DNA of 64,000 bases, from NCBI GenBank assembly GCA_022764165.1, contig JALERM010000045.1, positions 25,552 to 89,551 on the forward strand, read 5' to 3'. The notes beneath the pieces were generated by a model that saw only the letters and a list, made by a program, of their open reading frames with translations, had not been told where the DNA came from and searched no databases. Made by a program: the position numbers and the translations under genes. Position 1 is the stretch's first letter, and every line of letters begins with the position of its first letter. Origin of the DNA: Eubacterium sp. (GTDB lineage Bacteria; Bacillota; Clostridia; Lachnospirales; Lachnospiraceae). Below, piece after piece: positions 4,261 to 51,623 of the stretch.

Positions 4261-5030
4261 GCAAAAAAATGGACGATTTGCAGCAATGGATACAGGATTA
4301 TGATGTTCCAGAAGCACCTGAAAATAGAATGGAAAAGTTAATTTCTATGGGGCAAAGCTACATGGAAGGTCCTGAGTTTAATAAGAACTCTCTGCGAAAT
4401 GTTTTCTTGAGCCAGTTACAATATCTTCCATTTTCTTTTTGGACTGTCCAGGTAGGATTCCTTATGGCAGTGATAGCGGCAGTTTGCCTATTAGGACATT
4501 TTAAGGTTCAGCTTTATTATCCGCTCACTGTTTTGGCAATTACGATTCCTTTTATTGTGCTGTTAGGGGTAAGACAGATTTCCAAAAGTAATACTTATGG
4601 TATGTGGGAGATTGAACAGTCAAGTAGGTGTCAATTAGTAAAATTGGTGGCTTGCCGGATGATGATTGTTGGATTGTTTGACTTGTTTTTCGTAACAGGT
4701 ATATTGGTTCTAATGAGTTATTATTATCAACAACCCATCATCGGAATGATTTTGTACGGAATAGTTCCCCTTAATATATCCTGTGCCAGTTATCTGGTCA
4801 CGATTACAAAAGGAGAAAAATCGGAAGAGTCCTATCACTTGATCGCTTGTATGGTATGCCTTATGATTGCGTTTTCATTTATTTTAAGGCAACAGATTTT
4901 GTTTGAAGTTTCAATGATCTGGATGTGGGCTGTGTTTTATGTATCATCCATTATCTTTTTAGGAAAAGCAATTCAGAAATATTTGAAATATGAAAAAATG
5001 ATTGGAGAGTTGACATGGAACTTACAATAA
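4257..5030 (+). CDS. Six-TM membrane protein of ECF/ABC operon (possible anti-sigma)
   Basis: A 257-residue protein with about 60 soluble N-terminal residues, then six hydrophobic segments (roughly 63-82, 88-106, 130-152, 156-178, 190-207, 214-235). I do not recognise a named family. It is translationally coupled to the ECF sigma gene (ATGA overlap) and overlaps the ABC ATPase gene by 16 bp, so it belongs to a four-gene operon. The soluble N-terminus next to a coupled sigma factor would suit a membrane anti-sigma or sensor; that is inference. Confidence 0.65.
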   Translation: MSKKMDDLQQWIQDYDVPEAPENRMEKLISMGQSYMEGPEFNKNSLRNVFLSQLQYLPFSFWTVQVGFLMAVIAAVCLLGHFKVQLYYPLTVLAITIPFIVLLGVRQISKSNTYGMWEIEQSSRCQLVKLVACRMMIVGLFDLFFVTGILVLMSYYYQQPIIGMILYGIVPLNISCASYLVTITKGEKSEESYHLIACMVCLMIAFSFILRQQILFEVSMIWMWAVFYVSSIIFLGKAIQKYLKYEKMIGELTWNLQ

Positions 5031-20293: not shown

Positions 20294-23250
20294 TATTTTG
20301 CAGACACTTGTGGTAGCAATCGGCGCAGGTCTTGCCGTATGGGGCGTGATTAACCTTCTGGAAGGTTACGGAAATGACAACCGTGCGACACGTTCGTAAG
20401 TGAAAAGCTTACGCACAAAGTCGAAGGGCAATTGTAGCCCGAAACTTTGGAGAACTGATATTCCGATGGGTGAAATGAGGGGGTAACGTCCCGAAGCGCC
20501 ACCCTAATACTCCGAATGGCGGGGAGCATGCAACGGCTCTCTCCAAAAGTTTATAGAGCTCGGTGAAGTCGGCAGAGAGCAACCGTAAGACTGGTTTTCA
20601 GACCAGACACGAAAGCTGTCCAGAGGTGGATGGTGTTGCCTATATGCCGGGGGTCGGATATCCATGGTGAGAATGTATGAAAATACTGACGAAATTCCGA
20701 ATGTACGAGTCTAAACGTTGATGCTGTCGAAAGGCAGTACACCTTTCATGGTGGTATCTGTGGGCGAGTAAAATTGGTTGTTATGAAAGTCCATGCATCG
20801 TTACAGGCGGTGCGGTTATGCATGACCAGATACAGGCTTAGAGGAAGAACCTAAAGATATCCAATGATAGGAATATCGGAACGTGGAAAGCTGGGGACAC
20901 GGAGGCGGTTGCAGGCCAGTGATGTGGTGGATGGGAATACCTTCGCGGGAGGGCAATAACCATTCTTTATTCCAGTGAGAGTAGTGGCACAGTACCTATG
21001 AAGCCGTGAATAAGTAAGCGGTGGAGGGATAGCCACAAGTCGAATTCAGCAATGAAAATGAAAACACAACAAACACAGCTTCGAGTATGACAAAGAAAAT
21101 CCAAACCGAAGGGAGAGGATGCCTGTGTTGACTTCGGGGCAGCAAGAAAGGAAAAGTAAACAGAGAAAAATCCGCAACTCAGAGTATTACGACATGGAAG
21201 GTACTTTTGACAGGCTGTATGCAGAAAGTAAGAAAGATAAAACCTTCAACCATCTGATGGAAATCATCGAGAGTGAAGAAAATATCAAGCTTGCATACAG
21301 AACGATAAAGAAGAATACAGGAAGTGATACTTCGGGAGTGGATAAAAGGACGATAGCCGACCTTGCAAAGTTAAGCGAGGAAGAATACGTCCGTCTCATA
21401 CGGAAACAATTCAGTAATTATCATCCACGACCCGTAAGGCGAGTGGAGATACCAAAGCCCAATGGAAAGACCAGACCTCTGGGAATTCCAACTATCGTAG
21501 ATCGGATCGTACAGCAATGTATTTTGCAGGTCATGGAGCCGATATGTGAAGCAAAATTCAGTGAGAACTCCAACGGGTTCCGCCCGAACCGTTCCGCTGA
21601 GACTGCTATTGCGCAATGCATGAGGCTGATACAGGTACAGCATCTGTACCATGTGGTTGACCTCGATATTAAAGGCTTCTTTGATAATATCAGCCATACA
21701 AAGCTGATTCGTCAGATATGGGCATTGGGAATCCGGGAAAAAAAGCTGTTATGCATTATAAAAGAGATGCTGAAAGCACCTGTTGTTCTGCCAAATGGAG
21801 AGAAAACATATCCCGCACGGGGTACCCCGCAAGGCGGTATTTTGTCGCCATTGCTTGCAAACATCGTATTGAATGAACTGGATTGGTGGATTGCTTCCCA
21901 GTGGGAGCAGATGCCAACAAAAACAAAATTCAAAACAAGGAGCAATGCGCAGGGAACAGAGATTAAGAGCCACGCCTACAGGGCTCTGCGTCGGAGCAGA
22001 TTAAAAGAGATGCATGCAGTTCGGTACGCAGATGATTTTAAAATTTTCTGCGCAACACATGAGGATGCTGTCAGAGCATACAAGGCAACAGAGTTATGGC
22101 TAAAGGACAGGCTGGGGCTGGAAATCAGCCCTGACAAATCCAAAGTAGTTAATCTCAAAAGACAGTATTCTGATTTTCTCGGGTTCAAACTGAAAGTCCG
22201 TAAAAAGGGTAAGAAATATGTAGTTCGGTCTCATATGAGCGATAAAGCATACAAAAAGGCTCATGAAAAAGTCTCGGAAGAAGTAAAGAAACTGGCTCAT
22301 TCGTCAGATGATAATGCTCAGTTCATGCAGCTTCAGAAATACAACTCTGTAGTTGCCGGACTTCATGAATACTATTGTATTTCTACAGAAGTATCTCATG
22401 ACTTCAGCAGACTTGCCTTCAGTATCAACAAACAGCTCAGAAACAGACTGAACGGCGACTTATCCAAAAAGGGACAGCTCAGAAATGGGTTCATTAAAGA
22501 AAAGTATGGAGCAAGCAGACAGATGAGGTTCCTTCATGGACGTCCGGTGGTTCCACTGGGATATGTCCAGTCAAAGAATGCCCAGCATAAAAGGAAATCC
22601 ATCAATAAATATACGGTCAAAGGTCGGGAACAGATTCATAAGAATCTTGCAATCGACACAGCGACAATGTTATGGCTGATGAGAAATCCTGTAAAGGGCA
22701 GAACCATTGAATATGCGGATAACCGTATTTCCTTGTATGCGGCACAATATGGTAAATGTGCAGTGACGGGAATTCCGATGGATTCCTATGATATTCACTG
22801 CCACCATAAAGTGCCGGTAAGCAATGGCGGTTCAGATGAATACGCAAATCTTATTCTTGTCAGCAAAGCGGTTCATATCCTTATCCATGCTTCTTCAGAA
22901 CCTACGATTGAAAAGTACCTGAAATCCTTAAATCTTGACAATAAACAAATGGAAAAGCTTAACAAACTCCGTACTATGGCAGAAATGCCACTTATTATTC
23001 TTTGAATTTAATGCTGTAACGAAGTGTGTAAGTTGTGTTTAAAAGCCCTGGACGGCTGAATTCGATGGAGCGCCGTGTGCGGTGAAAGTCGCATGCACGG
23101 TGTGGAGCGGGGGAAAATCCGGAGATAACTTCAAAGGATTACCTATCGCTATCAGGTGCAAAATCACAGGGAATCAAACAGCTTATGGCAGGCGGTGGCG
23201 TGGTTCTGATTGGTACACAGCTTATTCCCCTGCTTGGAGGTTTGTTCTGA
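20268..23250 (+). CDS. Maff2 family protein, split by group II intron
   Basis: Exon 1 is 20268-20382 and exon 2 is 23153-23250. Joining them gives 213 nt and a 70-residue protein with the junction EGYGNDN-P-GAKSQG, the conserved Maff2 run. Two hydrophobic segments flank a Gly-rich turn (TLVVAIGAGLAVWGVINLL and AGGGVVLIGTQLIPLLGG). Its size, two-TM form and position just before VirB6-, VirB3- and VirB4-like genes suggest a VirB2-type channel or pilus subunit; that is inference. Without splicing the frame runs into intron sequence and stops, so conjugation should depend on intron removal. Confidence 0.85.
21119..23005 (+). CDS. ltrA: Group II intron reverse transcriptase/maturase
   Basis: A 628-residue intron-encoded protein. 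RT domains lie at about 85-370, with the catalytic RYADDF motif near 303 and RT motifs GIPTIVDRIVQQCI and TPQGGILSPLLANI. The X/maturase domain spans about 380-520. An HNH endonuclease sits at the end (CAVTGIPMDSYDIHCHHKVP, NGGSDEYANLIL). It binds its intron RNA, helps splicing, and supports retrohoming by cutting the target bottom strand and copying the intron. The start ATG 21119 follows GGGAGAGG. No frameshift or missing catalytic residue is seen. Confidence 0.95.
   Translation: MPVLTSGQQERKSKQRKIRNSEYYDMEGTFDRLYAESKKDKTFNHLMEIIESEENIKLAYRTIKKNTGSDTSGVDKRTIADLAKLSEEEYVRLIRKQFSNYHPRPVRRVEIPKPNGKTRPLGIPTIVDRIVQQCILQVMEPICEAKFSENSNGFRPNRSAETAIAQCMRLIQVQHLYHVVDLDIKGFFDNISHTKLIRQIWALGIREKKLLCIIKEMLKAPVVLPNGEKTYPARGTPQGGILSPLLANIVLNELDWWIASQWEQMPTKTKFKTRSNAQGTEIKSHAYRALRRSRLKEMHAVRYADDFKIFCATHEDAVRAYKATELWLKDRLGLEISPDKSKVVNLKRQYSDFLGFKLKVRKKGKKYVVRSHMSDKAYKKAHEKVSEEVKKLAHSSDDNAQFMQLQKYNSVVAGLHEYYCISTEVSHDFSRLAFSINKQLRNRLNGDLSKKGQLRNGFIKEKYGASRQMRFLHGRPVVPLGYVQSKNAQHKRKSINKYTVKGREQIHKNLAIDTATMLWLMRNPVKGRTIEYADNRISLYAAQYGKCAVTGIPMDSYDIHCHHKVPVSNGGSDEYANLILVSKAVHILIHASSEPTIEKYLKSLNLDNKQMEKLNKLRTMAEMPLIIL
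23068..23152 (+). ncRNA. Group II intron domains V and VI
   Basis: GCCGTGTGCGG, the GTGAAAGTCGC segment and CATGCACGGT form the domain V hairpin with the AGC triad at its base. The following AAATCC...GGATT stem with CCTATC is domain VI, carrying the branch-point adenosine. Both are catalytic parts of the ribozyme. Confidence 0.8.
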
Positions 23251-50202: not shown

Positions 50203-50209
50203 TAAAAAA

Positions 50210-50250
50210 GGAAGATGTTTGCCCTTGCGTGGCGGCATCTTCCCTTTTTT
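50210..50250. terminator. Bidirectional terminator
   Basis: GGAAGATG and CATCTTCC form an 8-bp stem with AAAAAA before and TTTTTT after, so it ends the plus-strand YodL transcript and the minus-strand Abi transcript (the T run overlaps the Abi stop). Confidence 0.8.
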
Positions 50251-51193
50251 ATGGAGTTAATCGGTAGCGGGTAATATCTTTCCAGTTTGGTGGGAAACCC
50301 ATCCGATTAAGAAGTTCAGTATTGTCAATATGGATAAGATTTTTTGAGGTATGGTCAATTAACGTAGATAACTTCCGTTTGAAAACCTGAAAATCTTTAC
50401 CTGGAATCAGATAGCGAAAGGCAATCACAACGGCAAACAAATCATTTTTTCCATATTGATATTGGATTCCATTCATCGGTATTGAAAGTTTTTTATGTAA
50501 TGGCAAATCAGAAATATTATCTATTGTCCGATAGGTAAATAAGCGTTCTCCGTGAGCGCATACGTTTCTGAACTTTGTCAGCACAGATAAAAATTGTTCC
50601 ATCTGGCGTCTGTTAATGATACCGAAATTTTTGCATACTTTGGACTGTAGGGATTGCGGAAATACTTTATACATTTTTGAAAGATTTCCAAAGGTCAGGA
50701 CGTTAATTAATACCCATAAGGGGATATTTCCATAAGTGGCTCTATAATAATTGATGTATTCGTAATCAGTAGTTGAAGCTGCCCTTTGCAAGGTTGCGAT
50801 TAAACGGACAACAGTTTTATGATTTTTCCGGCTGTTGTTGAAATTATTTTCGTCCAGATAAGCGGATTGTGCTTCTCCATATTGTTCTGAAAAATAGTAT
50901 GACATCAAAGAACGGAGATGCCGTTCTATTTGCAGCAGATATTTGAAAAACAATTCTCTAAGTTCTTTATCGAACTCATAGAGAGAAACAATTTCTTCAA
51001 AGGAAGTACCATTTTTATATTTCTTTGTTAATGGAATACGGAATAAATGCTTATAGCCGCCCATTAAGGGAAAATAACCAATGCGTTTCAAAATATCTTC
51101 CGCATACTGCTTATCTGAAATGATAATATGCTTTTCTTCATGGAGCCATTCAACCTGTTCCGAAAAAGTGGAAAATTTCTTTTGTGGCAACAT
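50249..51193 (-). CDS. Abi_2 (AbiF/AbiD-like) HEPN abortive-infection protein
   Basis: A 314-residue protein of the Abi_2 family. Start ATG 51193 follows AAGGAG; the track's extra 87 codons read through the RNA gene upstream. Family features are FSEQVEWLHEEKHI, an LKRIGYFPLMGGY segment, ELFFKYLLQIERHLRSLMSY, and the HEPN motif FRNVCAHGER (R209 to H214, R-x4-H). HEPN proteins of this group are RNases that stop growth during phage infection, and AbiF-type ones are linked to a small RNA. It is transcribed against the transfer operon, after an XRE gene and a small RNA locus. Confidence 0.88.
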   Translation of the reverse strand: MLPQKKFSTFSEQVEWLHEEKHIIISDKQYAEDILKRIGYFPLMGGYKHLFRIPLTKKYKNGTSFEEIVSLYEFDKELRELFFKYLLQIERHLRSLMSYYFSEQYGEAQSAYLDENNFNNSRKNHKTVVRLIATLQRAASTTDYEYINYYRATYGNIPLWVLINVLTFGNLSKMYKVFPQSLQSKVCKNFGIINRRQMEQFLSVLTKFRNVCAHGERLFTYRTIDNISDLPLHKKLSIPMNGIQYQYGKNDLFAVVIAFRYLIPGKDFQVFKRKLSTLIDHTSKNLIHIDNTELLNRMGFPPNWKDITRYRLTP

Positions 51194-51205
51194 TTTTTTC
51201 TCCTT

Positions 51206-51277
51206 AAACAAAAGAGGGAGAGACCCGCAGGTTCTCCCCCGGTCACGGGCTTCGCAAGTTTCCGTAACACGATCACT
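51206..51277 (-). ncRNA. Candidate abiF-type small RNA upstream of Abi gene
   Basis: From a consensus promoter at 51284-51312 an RNA of about 72 nt would run to a strong hairpin (GGGAGA-ACC / GGT-C-TCTCCC, loop TGCG) followed by TCTTTTGTTT. A second stem is GTTACGG / CCGTGAC. It ends 12 nt before the Abi ATG. I recall a conserved RNA motif named abiF just upstream of Abi_2 genes; the position fits, the structure was not checked against the model. Confidence 0.65.
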
Positions 51278-51283
51278 GAGTCT

Positions 51284-51312
51284 AATATAGCAGGATTGAC
51301 GGAAAAAGTCAA
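51284..51312 (-). promoter_or_regulatory. Promoter of small RNA / Abi gene
   Basis: On the minus strand TTGACT (51312-51307), 17 nt, TATATT (51289-51284). Likely start of transcription is near 51277. Confidence 0.8.
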
Positions 51313-51380
51313 TACGCTGGTTCAACTCTGTGTTAGTATATGCCGTATTACCGGAAAAGATACCAGAGAGTGCGTCAGAG

Positions 51381-51424
51381 AATAAAAATAAGCCTGATCC
51401 TGTGTGAGAGTAGCGATCAGACTT
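51381..51424 (-). terminator. Terminator of minus-strand XRE gene
   Basis: AAGTCTGATC pairs with GATCAGGCTT (one mismatch) and is followed by ATTTTTATT on the minus strand. It separates the XRE gene from the small RNA/Abi unit. Confidence 0.75.
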
Positions 51425-51623
51425 AATCTTTATAATGTGTCGCAATATCCTCAATATTACAATCCAGAATATTGCATAGAGTATTTATAGTGTTCATGCT
51501 TACGCCTTCATTATTTTGCAAGCGATGAAGCAGAGATTTGCTGAAATGATATTCTTTATGCAACGTATATTTAGTTATGCCTTTGGATTTCATGGTATCC
51601 CACAGTTTGTCATACTTTATCAT
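51423..51623 (-). CDS. Small XRE-type regulator next to Abi gene
   Basis: A 66-residue HTH protein (YDKLWDTMKSKGITKYTLHK, FSKSLLHRLQNNEGVSMNTI, LDCNIEDIATHYKD) that fits the HTH_26/XRE group. Start ATG 51623 lies after AAAGGGGGATG; the ORF-track start at 51890 is in the region of the divergent gene. It probably controls its own promoter and may control the Abi/RNA unit, although a terminator lies between them. Confidence 0.78.
   Translation of the reverse strand: MIKYDKLWDTMKSKGITKYTLHKEYHFSKSLLHRLQNNEGVSMNTINTLCNILDCNIEDIATHYKD

What the first reader, a model, noticed from the sequence alone, without database searches (positions are those of the whole stretch)
50249..51623. AbiF-like HEPN protein with an upstream ~72-nt RNA unit and an XRE gene, carried by the ICE
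Between the XRE gene and the Abi_2 gene, a perfect-spacing promoter drives a short sequence that ends in a strong hairpin and T-rich tail 12 nt before the Abi ATG. Abi_2 proteins of AbiF type are linked in the literature, as I recall it, to a structured RNA that works as antitoxin or guide-like partner. Here the locus sits between the transfer operon and oriT, so it may serve defence and element maintenance together.
Basis: partly seen in the sequence, partly recalled or inferred. Interest (0 to 1): 0.85.

Follow-up and report, generated by a model that had tools for sequence, protein, structure and literature searches.

The report
Toxin-paired small RNA on mobile element
A gene for a probable RNA-cutting, growth-stopping protein on a gut-bacterial mobile element is paired, across more than a hundred relatives, with a small folded RNA that is absent from the public RNA-family library and most likely keeps the protein in check.

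Summary
The gene at 50249-51193(-) is an AbiF/AbiD-type HEPN protein: Abi_2 1e-52, HEPN motif RNVCAH, predicted fold matching PbAbiF (8vz6). Upstream lie a promoter and an RNA of about 67 nt ending in a terminator. The same RNA occurs beside essentially every toxin of one clade: upstream in 117 of 121 loci at 36% identity or more, and beside all 89 non-redundant clade toxins. Its 7-bp helix is 99.7% paired, with both-sided changes in six of seven pairs. It is not the Rfam abiF RNA (RF03085), which sits beside a different Abi_2 clade in the same genomes. The RNA also occurs downstream of the toxin with its own promoter, in tandem, and alone beside broken or missing toxins; no intact clade toxin lacking it was found. 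Together with the tested C. difficile AbiF/RCd22 system, this favours a trans-acting RNA antitoxin (type III-like). The XRE gene is not part of the module, and no guide region exists. The RNA is distinct from RF03085; whether other published AbiF RNA models (Zilberzwige-Tal 2025) already cover it could not be checked.

The parts
51284..51312 (-). Sigma-70/SigA-type promoter of the RNA (TTGACT-17-TATATT, extended -10 TG)
   Evidence: conserved upstream of relatives, 98 of 100 with at least 9 of 12 consensus bases and fixed 6-7 nt distance to the RNA in 99 of 100
51211..51277 (-). Small structured RNA, about 67 nt, predicted 5' end at AGUGA; candidate RNA antitoxin
   Evidence: R2 covariance model 81.2 bits, E 8e-23; conserved upstream in 117 of 121 loci; no Rfam match
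51262..51268 (-). 5' strand of helix P1 (GUUACGG), pairs with 51248-51242
   Evidence: 99.7% paired over 43 sequences, both-sided changes in 6 of 7 pairs
51242..51248 (-). 3' strand of helix P1 (CCGUGAC)
51249..51261 (-). Conserved apical region AAACUUGCGAAGC (one C and three G invariant), candidate toxin-contacting part
   Evidence: alignment A2, invariant columns; contact with toxin is inference
51210..51240 (-). Second hairpin (UGCG loop) plus U tract: intrinsic terminator between RNA and toxin gene
   Evidence: 88% paired, changes on both sides in all 9 pairs
50249..51193 (-). Abi_2/AbiD/AbiF-type HEPN protein, 314 aa; candidate RNase toxin
   Evidence: Pfam Abi_2 1e-52; PADLOC AbiD 1e-70; PDB 8vz6 3e-20; model pLDDT 94, Foldseek to 8vz6 E 2e-11
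50552..50569 (-). HEPN catalytic motif R209-N-V-C-A-H214
   Evidence: R, N, C, A and H invariant in 26 aligned relatives
50207..50246 (-). Hairpin and T run just after the abi stop: likely terminator of the module
   Evidence: sequence; homology with relatives in other contexts ends about here
51423..51623 (-). XRE/HTH_26 gene; adjacent but not part of the module
   Evidence: found in no other locus

Best explanation
This is a two-part toxin/RNA-antitoxin cassette of about 1.1 kb (promoter, ~67-nt RNA, terminator, abiF-type gene) carried as cargo on a conjugative element. One promoter makes mostly the short RNA, because transcription stops at the terminator; read-through makes the toxin mRNA. 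The RNA folds into a 7-bp helix with a conserved apical loop and binds the dimeric HEPN protein in trans, blocking its RNase site. Loss of the element, or a phage that shuts down host transcription, would deplete the short-lived RNA and free the toxin, giving element maintenance and abortive phage defence. Shown here: the gene family and predicted fold, the conserved promoter, the RNA fold by covariation, one RNA class per toxin clade, RNA retention without toxin, and downstream and duplicated copies. Inferred: expression, binding, toxicity, the trigger and any benefit.
For: Toxin identity. RNA upstream in 117 of 121 loci with a toxin at 36% identity or more, and by pattern in 0 of 48 below that; the label needs 2 changes on the toxin tree against 42 for shuffles (all 89 clade rows once the downstream copy in G190 is counted). 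P1 99.7% paired with covariation; over the whole structure 0 of 500 shuffles reach the observed score. Fixed promoter position. Trans action: G190/L021 has the RNA 55 nt downstream of the toxin with its own promoter; G171 has copies on both sides, the downstream one with its own promoter; L009/L090 have two tandem copies. Asymmetry: 26 RNA loci have a truncated or missing toxin yet keep P1: 45 stem substitutions against the nearest linked RNA but only 3 broken pairs, all one shared allele. No intact toxin of the clade lacks the RNA. In the order-level sample, of 37 strong RNA hits (45 bits or more) 22 sit by a toxin, 7 by remnants, 8 by none (counted by hand). Precedent: C. difficile AbiF is toxic and RCd22 neutralises it in trans by direct binding (PMC12373285); PbAbiF-ncRNA structure 8VZ6, as reviewed in PMC12737573.
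Against: Nothing was measured: no expression, toxicity or binding data. The window's RNA is a single unit, whereas RCd22 carries two motifs and classical type III antitoxins are repeats. Orphan RNAs could be recent leftovers rather than selected antitoxins; five of the 26 (L240-L244) belong to one repeated element without the promoter. The RNA has no detectable match to RF03085, so the binding mode cannot simply be carried over.
Confidence: 0.8

Rival explanations
1. Cis-acting leader only: the RNA is an attenuator of the abi mRNA, perhaps relieved by a phage protein as in lactococcal AbiD1, and does not bind the toxin.
For: The RNA ends in a terminator just upstream of the gene in nearly all loci; a regulated abiD1 leader is described (cited in PMC12373285).
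Against: RNA copies downstream of the toxin with their own promoter, tandem copies, and RNA loci without any toxin that keep the fold.
Confidence: 0.12
2. Type II toxin-antitoxin pair in which the XRE protein is the antitoxin of the Abi protein and the RNA is incidental.
For: The XRE gene is adjacent on the same strand; XRE antitoxins are common in general (own knowledge).
Against: The XRE gene is found in no other of about 190 loci, including three in the same element context; homology with relatives in other contexts runs from the RNA promoter (about 51343) to just after the abi gene (about 50245).
Confidence: 0.02
3. RNA-guided RNase: the RNA is a guide that directs the HEPN protein to targets, like Cas13.
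For: AbiF is proposed as ancestor of Cas13 (PMC12165695, PMC12737573).
Against: No variable spacer: the freely varying unpaired stretch between AGUGA and P1 is about 4 nt and all else is paired or conserved (alignment A2). The predicted fold matches PbAbiF over nearly its full length, with no added targeting lobe.
Confidence: 0.03
4. A degenerate or silent locus: intact by sequence but without toxic activity in this host.
For: Abi_2 loci decay often: several relatives carry stops or deletions.
Against: The window copy has an open frame, an intact HEPN motif, a perfect P1 and a good promoter and ribosome site.
Confidence: 0.03

Closest known systems
Clostridioides difficile AbiF/RCd22 (prophage phi027; PMC12373285)
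   Same: Abi_2 HEPN protein; small structured RNA from a SigA promoter directly upstream; terminator between RNA and gene; RNA neutralises toxin in cis and in trans (tested there).
   Different: Only about 28% protein identity (phiC2 homologue). RCd22 is about 100-132 nt with two RF03085-type motifs; here one ~67-nt unit of another family, with no RF03085 match.
PbAbiF-AbiFr RNP (PDB 8vz6; Zilberzwige-Tal et al., Cell 2025, known here only through PMC12373285 and PMC12737573)
   Same: Same protein fold (Foldseek E 2e-11, TM 0.74/0.78) and HEPN motif.
   Different: 23% identity in the structural alignment; the nearest relative of PbAbiF examined (L251, 52% identical) carries RF03085 RNA at 59 bits and no R2 match.
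Rfam RF03085 abiF RNA
   Same: Short hairpin RNA next to Abi_2 genes, sometimes on both sides of the gene (L251).
   Different: Different consensus (CCCGCCAAGC...GCUCAAAUCGGCGGG); no match here at E 10; linked to a separate toxin clade.
Lactococcal AbiD1/AbiF
   Same: Abi_2 family; PADLOC assigns the window protein to AbiD; a short terminated leader transcript is reported for abiD1 (via PMC12373285).
   Different: Leader sequences were not compared here; activation by a phage protein is reported for AbiD1.
Type III TA systems ToxIN/CptIN/TenpIN
   Same: Logic: RNA antitoxin, terminator, RNase toxin.
   Different: Different toxin family (the window protein matches Abi_2 only); antitoxin there is a repeat array cut by the toxin.

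Membership tests
AbiF/AbiD (Abi_2, PF07751) HEPN proteins | Significant Abi_2 domain match | tested here: met
   179.6 bits, cut-off 25.6
AbiF/AbiD (Abi_2, PF07751) HEPN proteins | HEPN RNase motif R-polar-x3-H | tested here: met
   RNVCAH at 209-214; R, N, C, A and H invariant in 26 sequences
AbiF/AbiD (Abi_2, PF07751) HEPN proteins | Fold of the solved PbAbiF | tested here: met
   rank 1, E 2e-11
AbiF/AbiD (Abi_2, PF07751) HEPN proteins | Toxicity / RNase activity | not testable with these tools
   needs expression assay
Rfam RF03085 abiF RNA | Match to the covariance model at gathering score (37 bits) | tested here: not met
   no match even at E 10; positive controls found RF03085 beside phiC2 abiF and other paralogues
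Type III toxin-antitoxin | RNA gene upstream of toxin, shared promoter, terminator between them | tested here: met
   by sequence:
Type III toxin-antitoxin | Antitoxin made of tandem repeats | tested here: not met
   one unit in the window; two units only in L009/L090
Type III toxin-antitoxin | RNA binds and neutralises the protein in trans | not testable with these tools
   indirect support only: downstream and solitary copies
Type II TA with XRE antitoxin | Conserved pairing of XRE and toxin genes | tested here: not met
   XRE only in the window
RNA-guided HEPN nuclease (Cas13-like) | Variable guide segment next to a constant repeat | tested here: not met
   alignment A2, no variable segment

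The most novel reading that the evidence does not exclude
The RNA is an undescribed antitoxin family, separate in origin or diverged beyond recognition from RF03085, that defines its own AbiF clade. AbiF toxins as a whole would then carry several clade-specific RNA folds (R2 here, RF03085, the GGAACG class, others), i.e. repeated replacement or radical re-shaping of the RNA partner along the line that also led to Cas13.
Probability: 0.45. Interest if true: 0.75.

Novelty: new variant of a known kind. Interest (0 to 1): 0.58.

Why it matters
AbiF-RNA pairs are the proposed ancestors of Cas13, yet Rfam curates a single abiF RNA family. A second family, with more than a hundred examples, strong covariation and a clear one-to-one fit to a toxin clade, gives a ready data set for asking how RNA partners and HEPN toxins co-evolve. 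It also shows that scanning with RF03085 alone misses these systems in Lachnospiraceae and other Clostridia. The retained solitary RNAs suggest a natural immunity to the toxin that can be tested directly.

Tried and rejected
Rfam search as the deciding test: negative, but the RNA is real, so absence from Rfam is not absence of RNA. Weak Rfam hits over this RNA or its relatives (freshwater-2 19.4 bits, ZFAT-AS1_3, Atu_C8) are far below their cut-offs. XRE as antitoxin: rejected. Small peptide in the RNA: a GTG at the 5' end opens a short frame in many relatives, but there is no room for a ribosome site, the terminator part has 1-nt indels, and substitutions follow base pairing; rejected. First covariance model R1 had the second hairpin out of register and was replaced by R2. 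Toxins in the wider family without R2 (L231-L237, L131, L135) were checked: they belong to other clades and most carry another hairpin RNA; L235 has no obvious RNA and is unexplained. The automatic label for that hairpin class failed in the tree script (one search lists those rows as 'none'), so the class was assigned by eye. The Cell 2025 paper is not held, so its AbiF RNA models (named in PMC12804078) could not be compared.

Full report
What is there. The minus strand from 51312 to 50249 holds a promoter (TTGACT-17-TATATT with an extended -10), a ~67-nt stretch ending in a hairpin and T run, a ribosome site and a 314-aa gene. The protein is an Abi_2 protein (Pfam 179.6 bits; PADLOC AbiD 1e-70) with the HEPN motif RNVCAH, invariant across relatives apart from the V. 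Its only solved relative is PbAbiF (8vz6), by sequence (3e-20) and by predicted fold (pLDDT 94, Foldseek E 2e-11).

The RNA. Rfam gave no abiF (RF03085) match over the locus even at E 10 or at gathering score in the whole window. But the region upstream of close relatives showed the same element: promoter, AGUGA, a 7-bp helix enclosing (A)AACUYGNGANGC, then a terminator hairpin usually closed on a UGCG-type loop. Of 121 loci with a toxin at 36% or more identity and upstream sequence, 116 carry it by pattern and one more (L122) by covariance model. The four others: L021 has it downstream, L131 and L135 belong to another clade with another hairpin, and L066 has a toxin that lacks its N-terminal part. 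None of 48 loci below 36% identity carries it by pattern; one viral locus, L172, gives a weak 22-bit model match. In 43 non-redundant sequences helix P1 is 99.7% paired and six of seven pairs have changes on both sides; for the whole structure no shuffle of 500 and no slid version reaches the observed pairing or covariation score. The window scores 81.2 bits with the resulting model R2, its only hit. The -10 box ends 6-7 nt before AGUGA in 99 of 100 relatives, so the RNA 5' end is predicted at 51277.

A different family from RF03085. RF03085 hits in the same bacterial family lie directly beside other, about 30%-identical Abi_2 genes, beside the phiC2 gene and beside the nearest relative of PbAbiF examined (59 bits), where R2 finds nothing. 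Genome G201 has both kinds, each beside its own Abi_2 gene. On a tree of 139 toxins the R2 label needs 2 changes against 42 in shuffles; one of the two is the G190 toxin, whose RNA is downstream, so all 89 toxins of the R2 branch have the RNA. A sister clade carries a third kind of hairpin, GGAACGWACUCCGG...CCGGGGUC, also without Rfam match.

Trans action. In G190 the RNA sits 55 nt downstream of the toxin with its own promoter. In G171 there are copies on both sides, the downstream one again with a promoter-like sequence. L009/L090 have two tandem copies. Twenty-six RNA loci have a truncated toxin or none. These RNAs differ from the nearest toxin-linked RNA by 45 substitutions in P1 but break only three pairs, all the same allele in related copies. 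Toxin loss with RNA kept is common; an intact toxin with the RNA lost was not seen in this clade. That asymmetry is what an antitoxin predicts. Caveat: some orphans may be recent, and L240-L244 are copies of one repeated element without the promoter.

Context. DNA similarity to relatives in other genomic settings covers about 50245-51343, i.e. the RNA promoter to just past the toxin gene. The XRE gene lies outside this unit and occurs in no other locus, including three copies beside the same element genes (LPD18/DUF4316, relaxase) in L044, L048 and L056. So the mobile unit is RNA plus toxin. A relaxase (PF03432) and a MbpA-like mobilisation gene lie next to it; oriT itself was not examined.

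Mechanism. The tested C. difficile system has the same layout: RCd22 is made from a SigA promoter, mostly stops at a terminator before abiF, binds the AbiF protein and neutralises it in cis and in trans; HEPN residues are needed for toxicity (PMC12373285). PbAbiF binds one RNA per monomer and the RNA inhibits its RNase activity (review PMC12737573). By homology of the protein, equal layout and the evolutionary pattern, I infer the same for the window with another RNA. Expression, toxicity, binding, trigger and benefit are inferred, not shown.

Novelty. The kind is known (AbiF toxin with RNA antitoxin). The RNA is not in Rfam 15 and clearly differs from RF03085. However, PMC12804078 mentions further AbiF RNA covariance models by Zilberzwige-Tal et al., which could not be obtained. 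The fair label is a new variant of a known kind, with a real chance that the RNA class has been modelled before.

Noticed in passing
L231-L233, L131, L134, L135 (also L234, L236, L237), upstream of Abi_2 genes: A second hairpin RNA class (GGAACGWACUCCGGUGUCCUUCGGGCCCGGGGUC + T run) precedes another Abi_2 clade; no Rfam match.
   Followed up: partly
L253 (Leptotrichia hofstadii plasmid), upstream of the Abi gene: AGTGAACGTGAGCAACTTAGAGGGGAGCTCAC looks like a remote relative of the R2 RNA, though the model does not find it.
   Followed up: no
L240-L244 (five species of one genus): R2-type RNA without promoter or toxin inside a ~1.1 kb repeated element, followed by a small gene (MCDVKKYSDIYKEIAK...).
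   Followed up: partly
L021 / G190:C35: Abi_2 gene preceded by a helix-turn-helix 188-aa protein, with the RNA downstream: a rearranged form of the cassette.
   Followed up: yes
L235 / G084:C18: An Abi_2 gene with no recognisable RNA, preceded by a short charged protein that could be a substitute partner.
   Followed up: no
L251 (Phocaeicola plasmid) 415-451 and 1442-1501: RF03085 RNA on both sides of the abiF gene, the second with a longer apical loop.
   Followed up: no
window 20450-20661 and 23068-23152: Group II intron matches (D1-D4-5 and Intron_gpII families) in the window.
   Followed up: no
G000:C153:5310-5996 (L002): A second, 30%-identical Abi_2 gene in the same genome; its RNA partner was not identified.
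   Followed up: no
window 4678-4705(+): A second exact TTGACT-TATATT promoter-like site.
   Followed up: no
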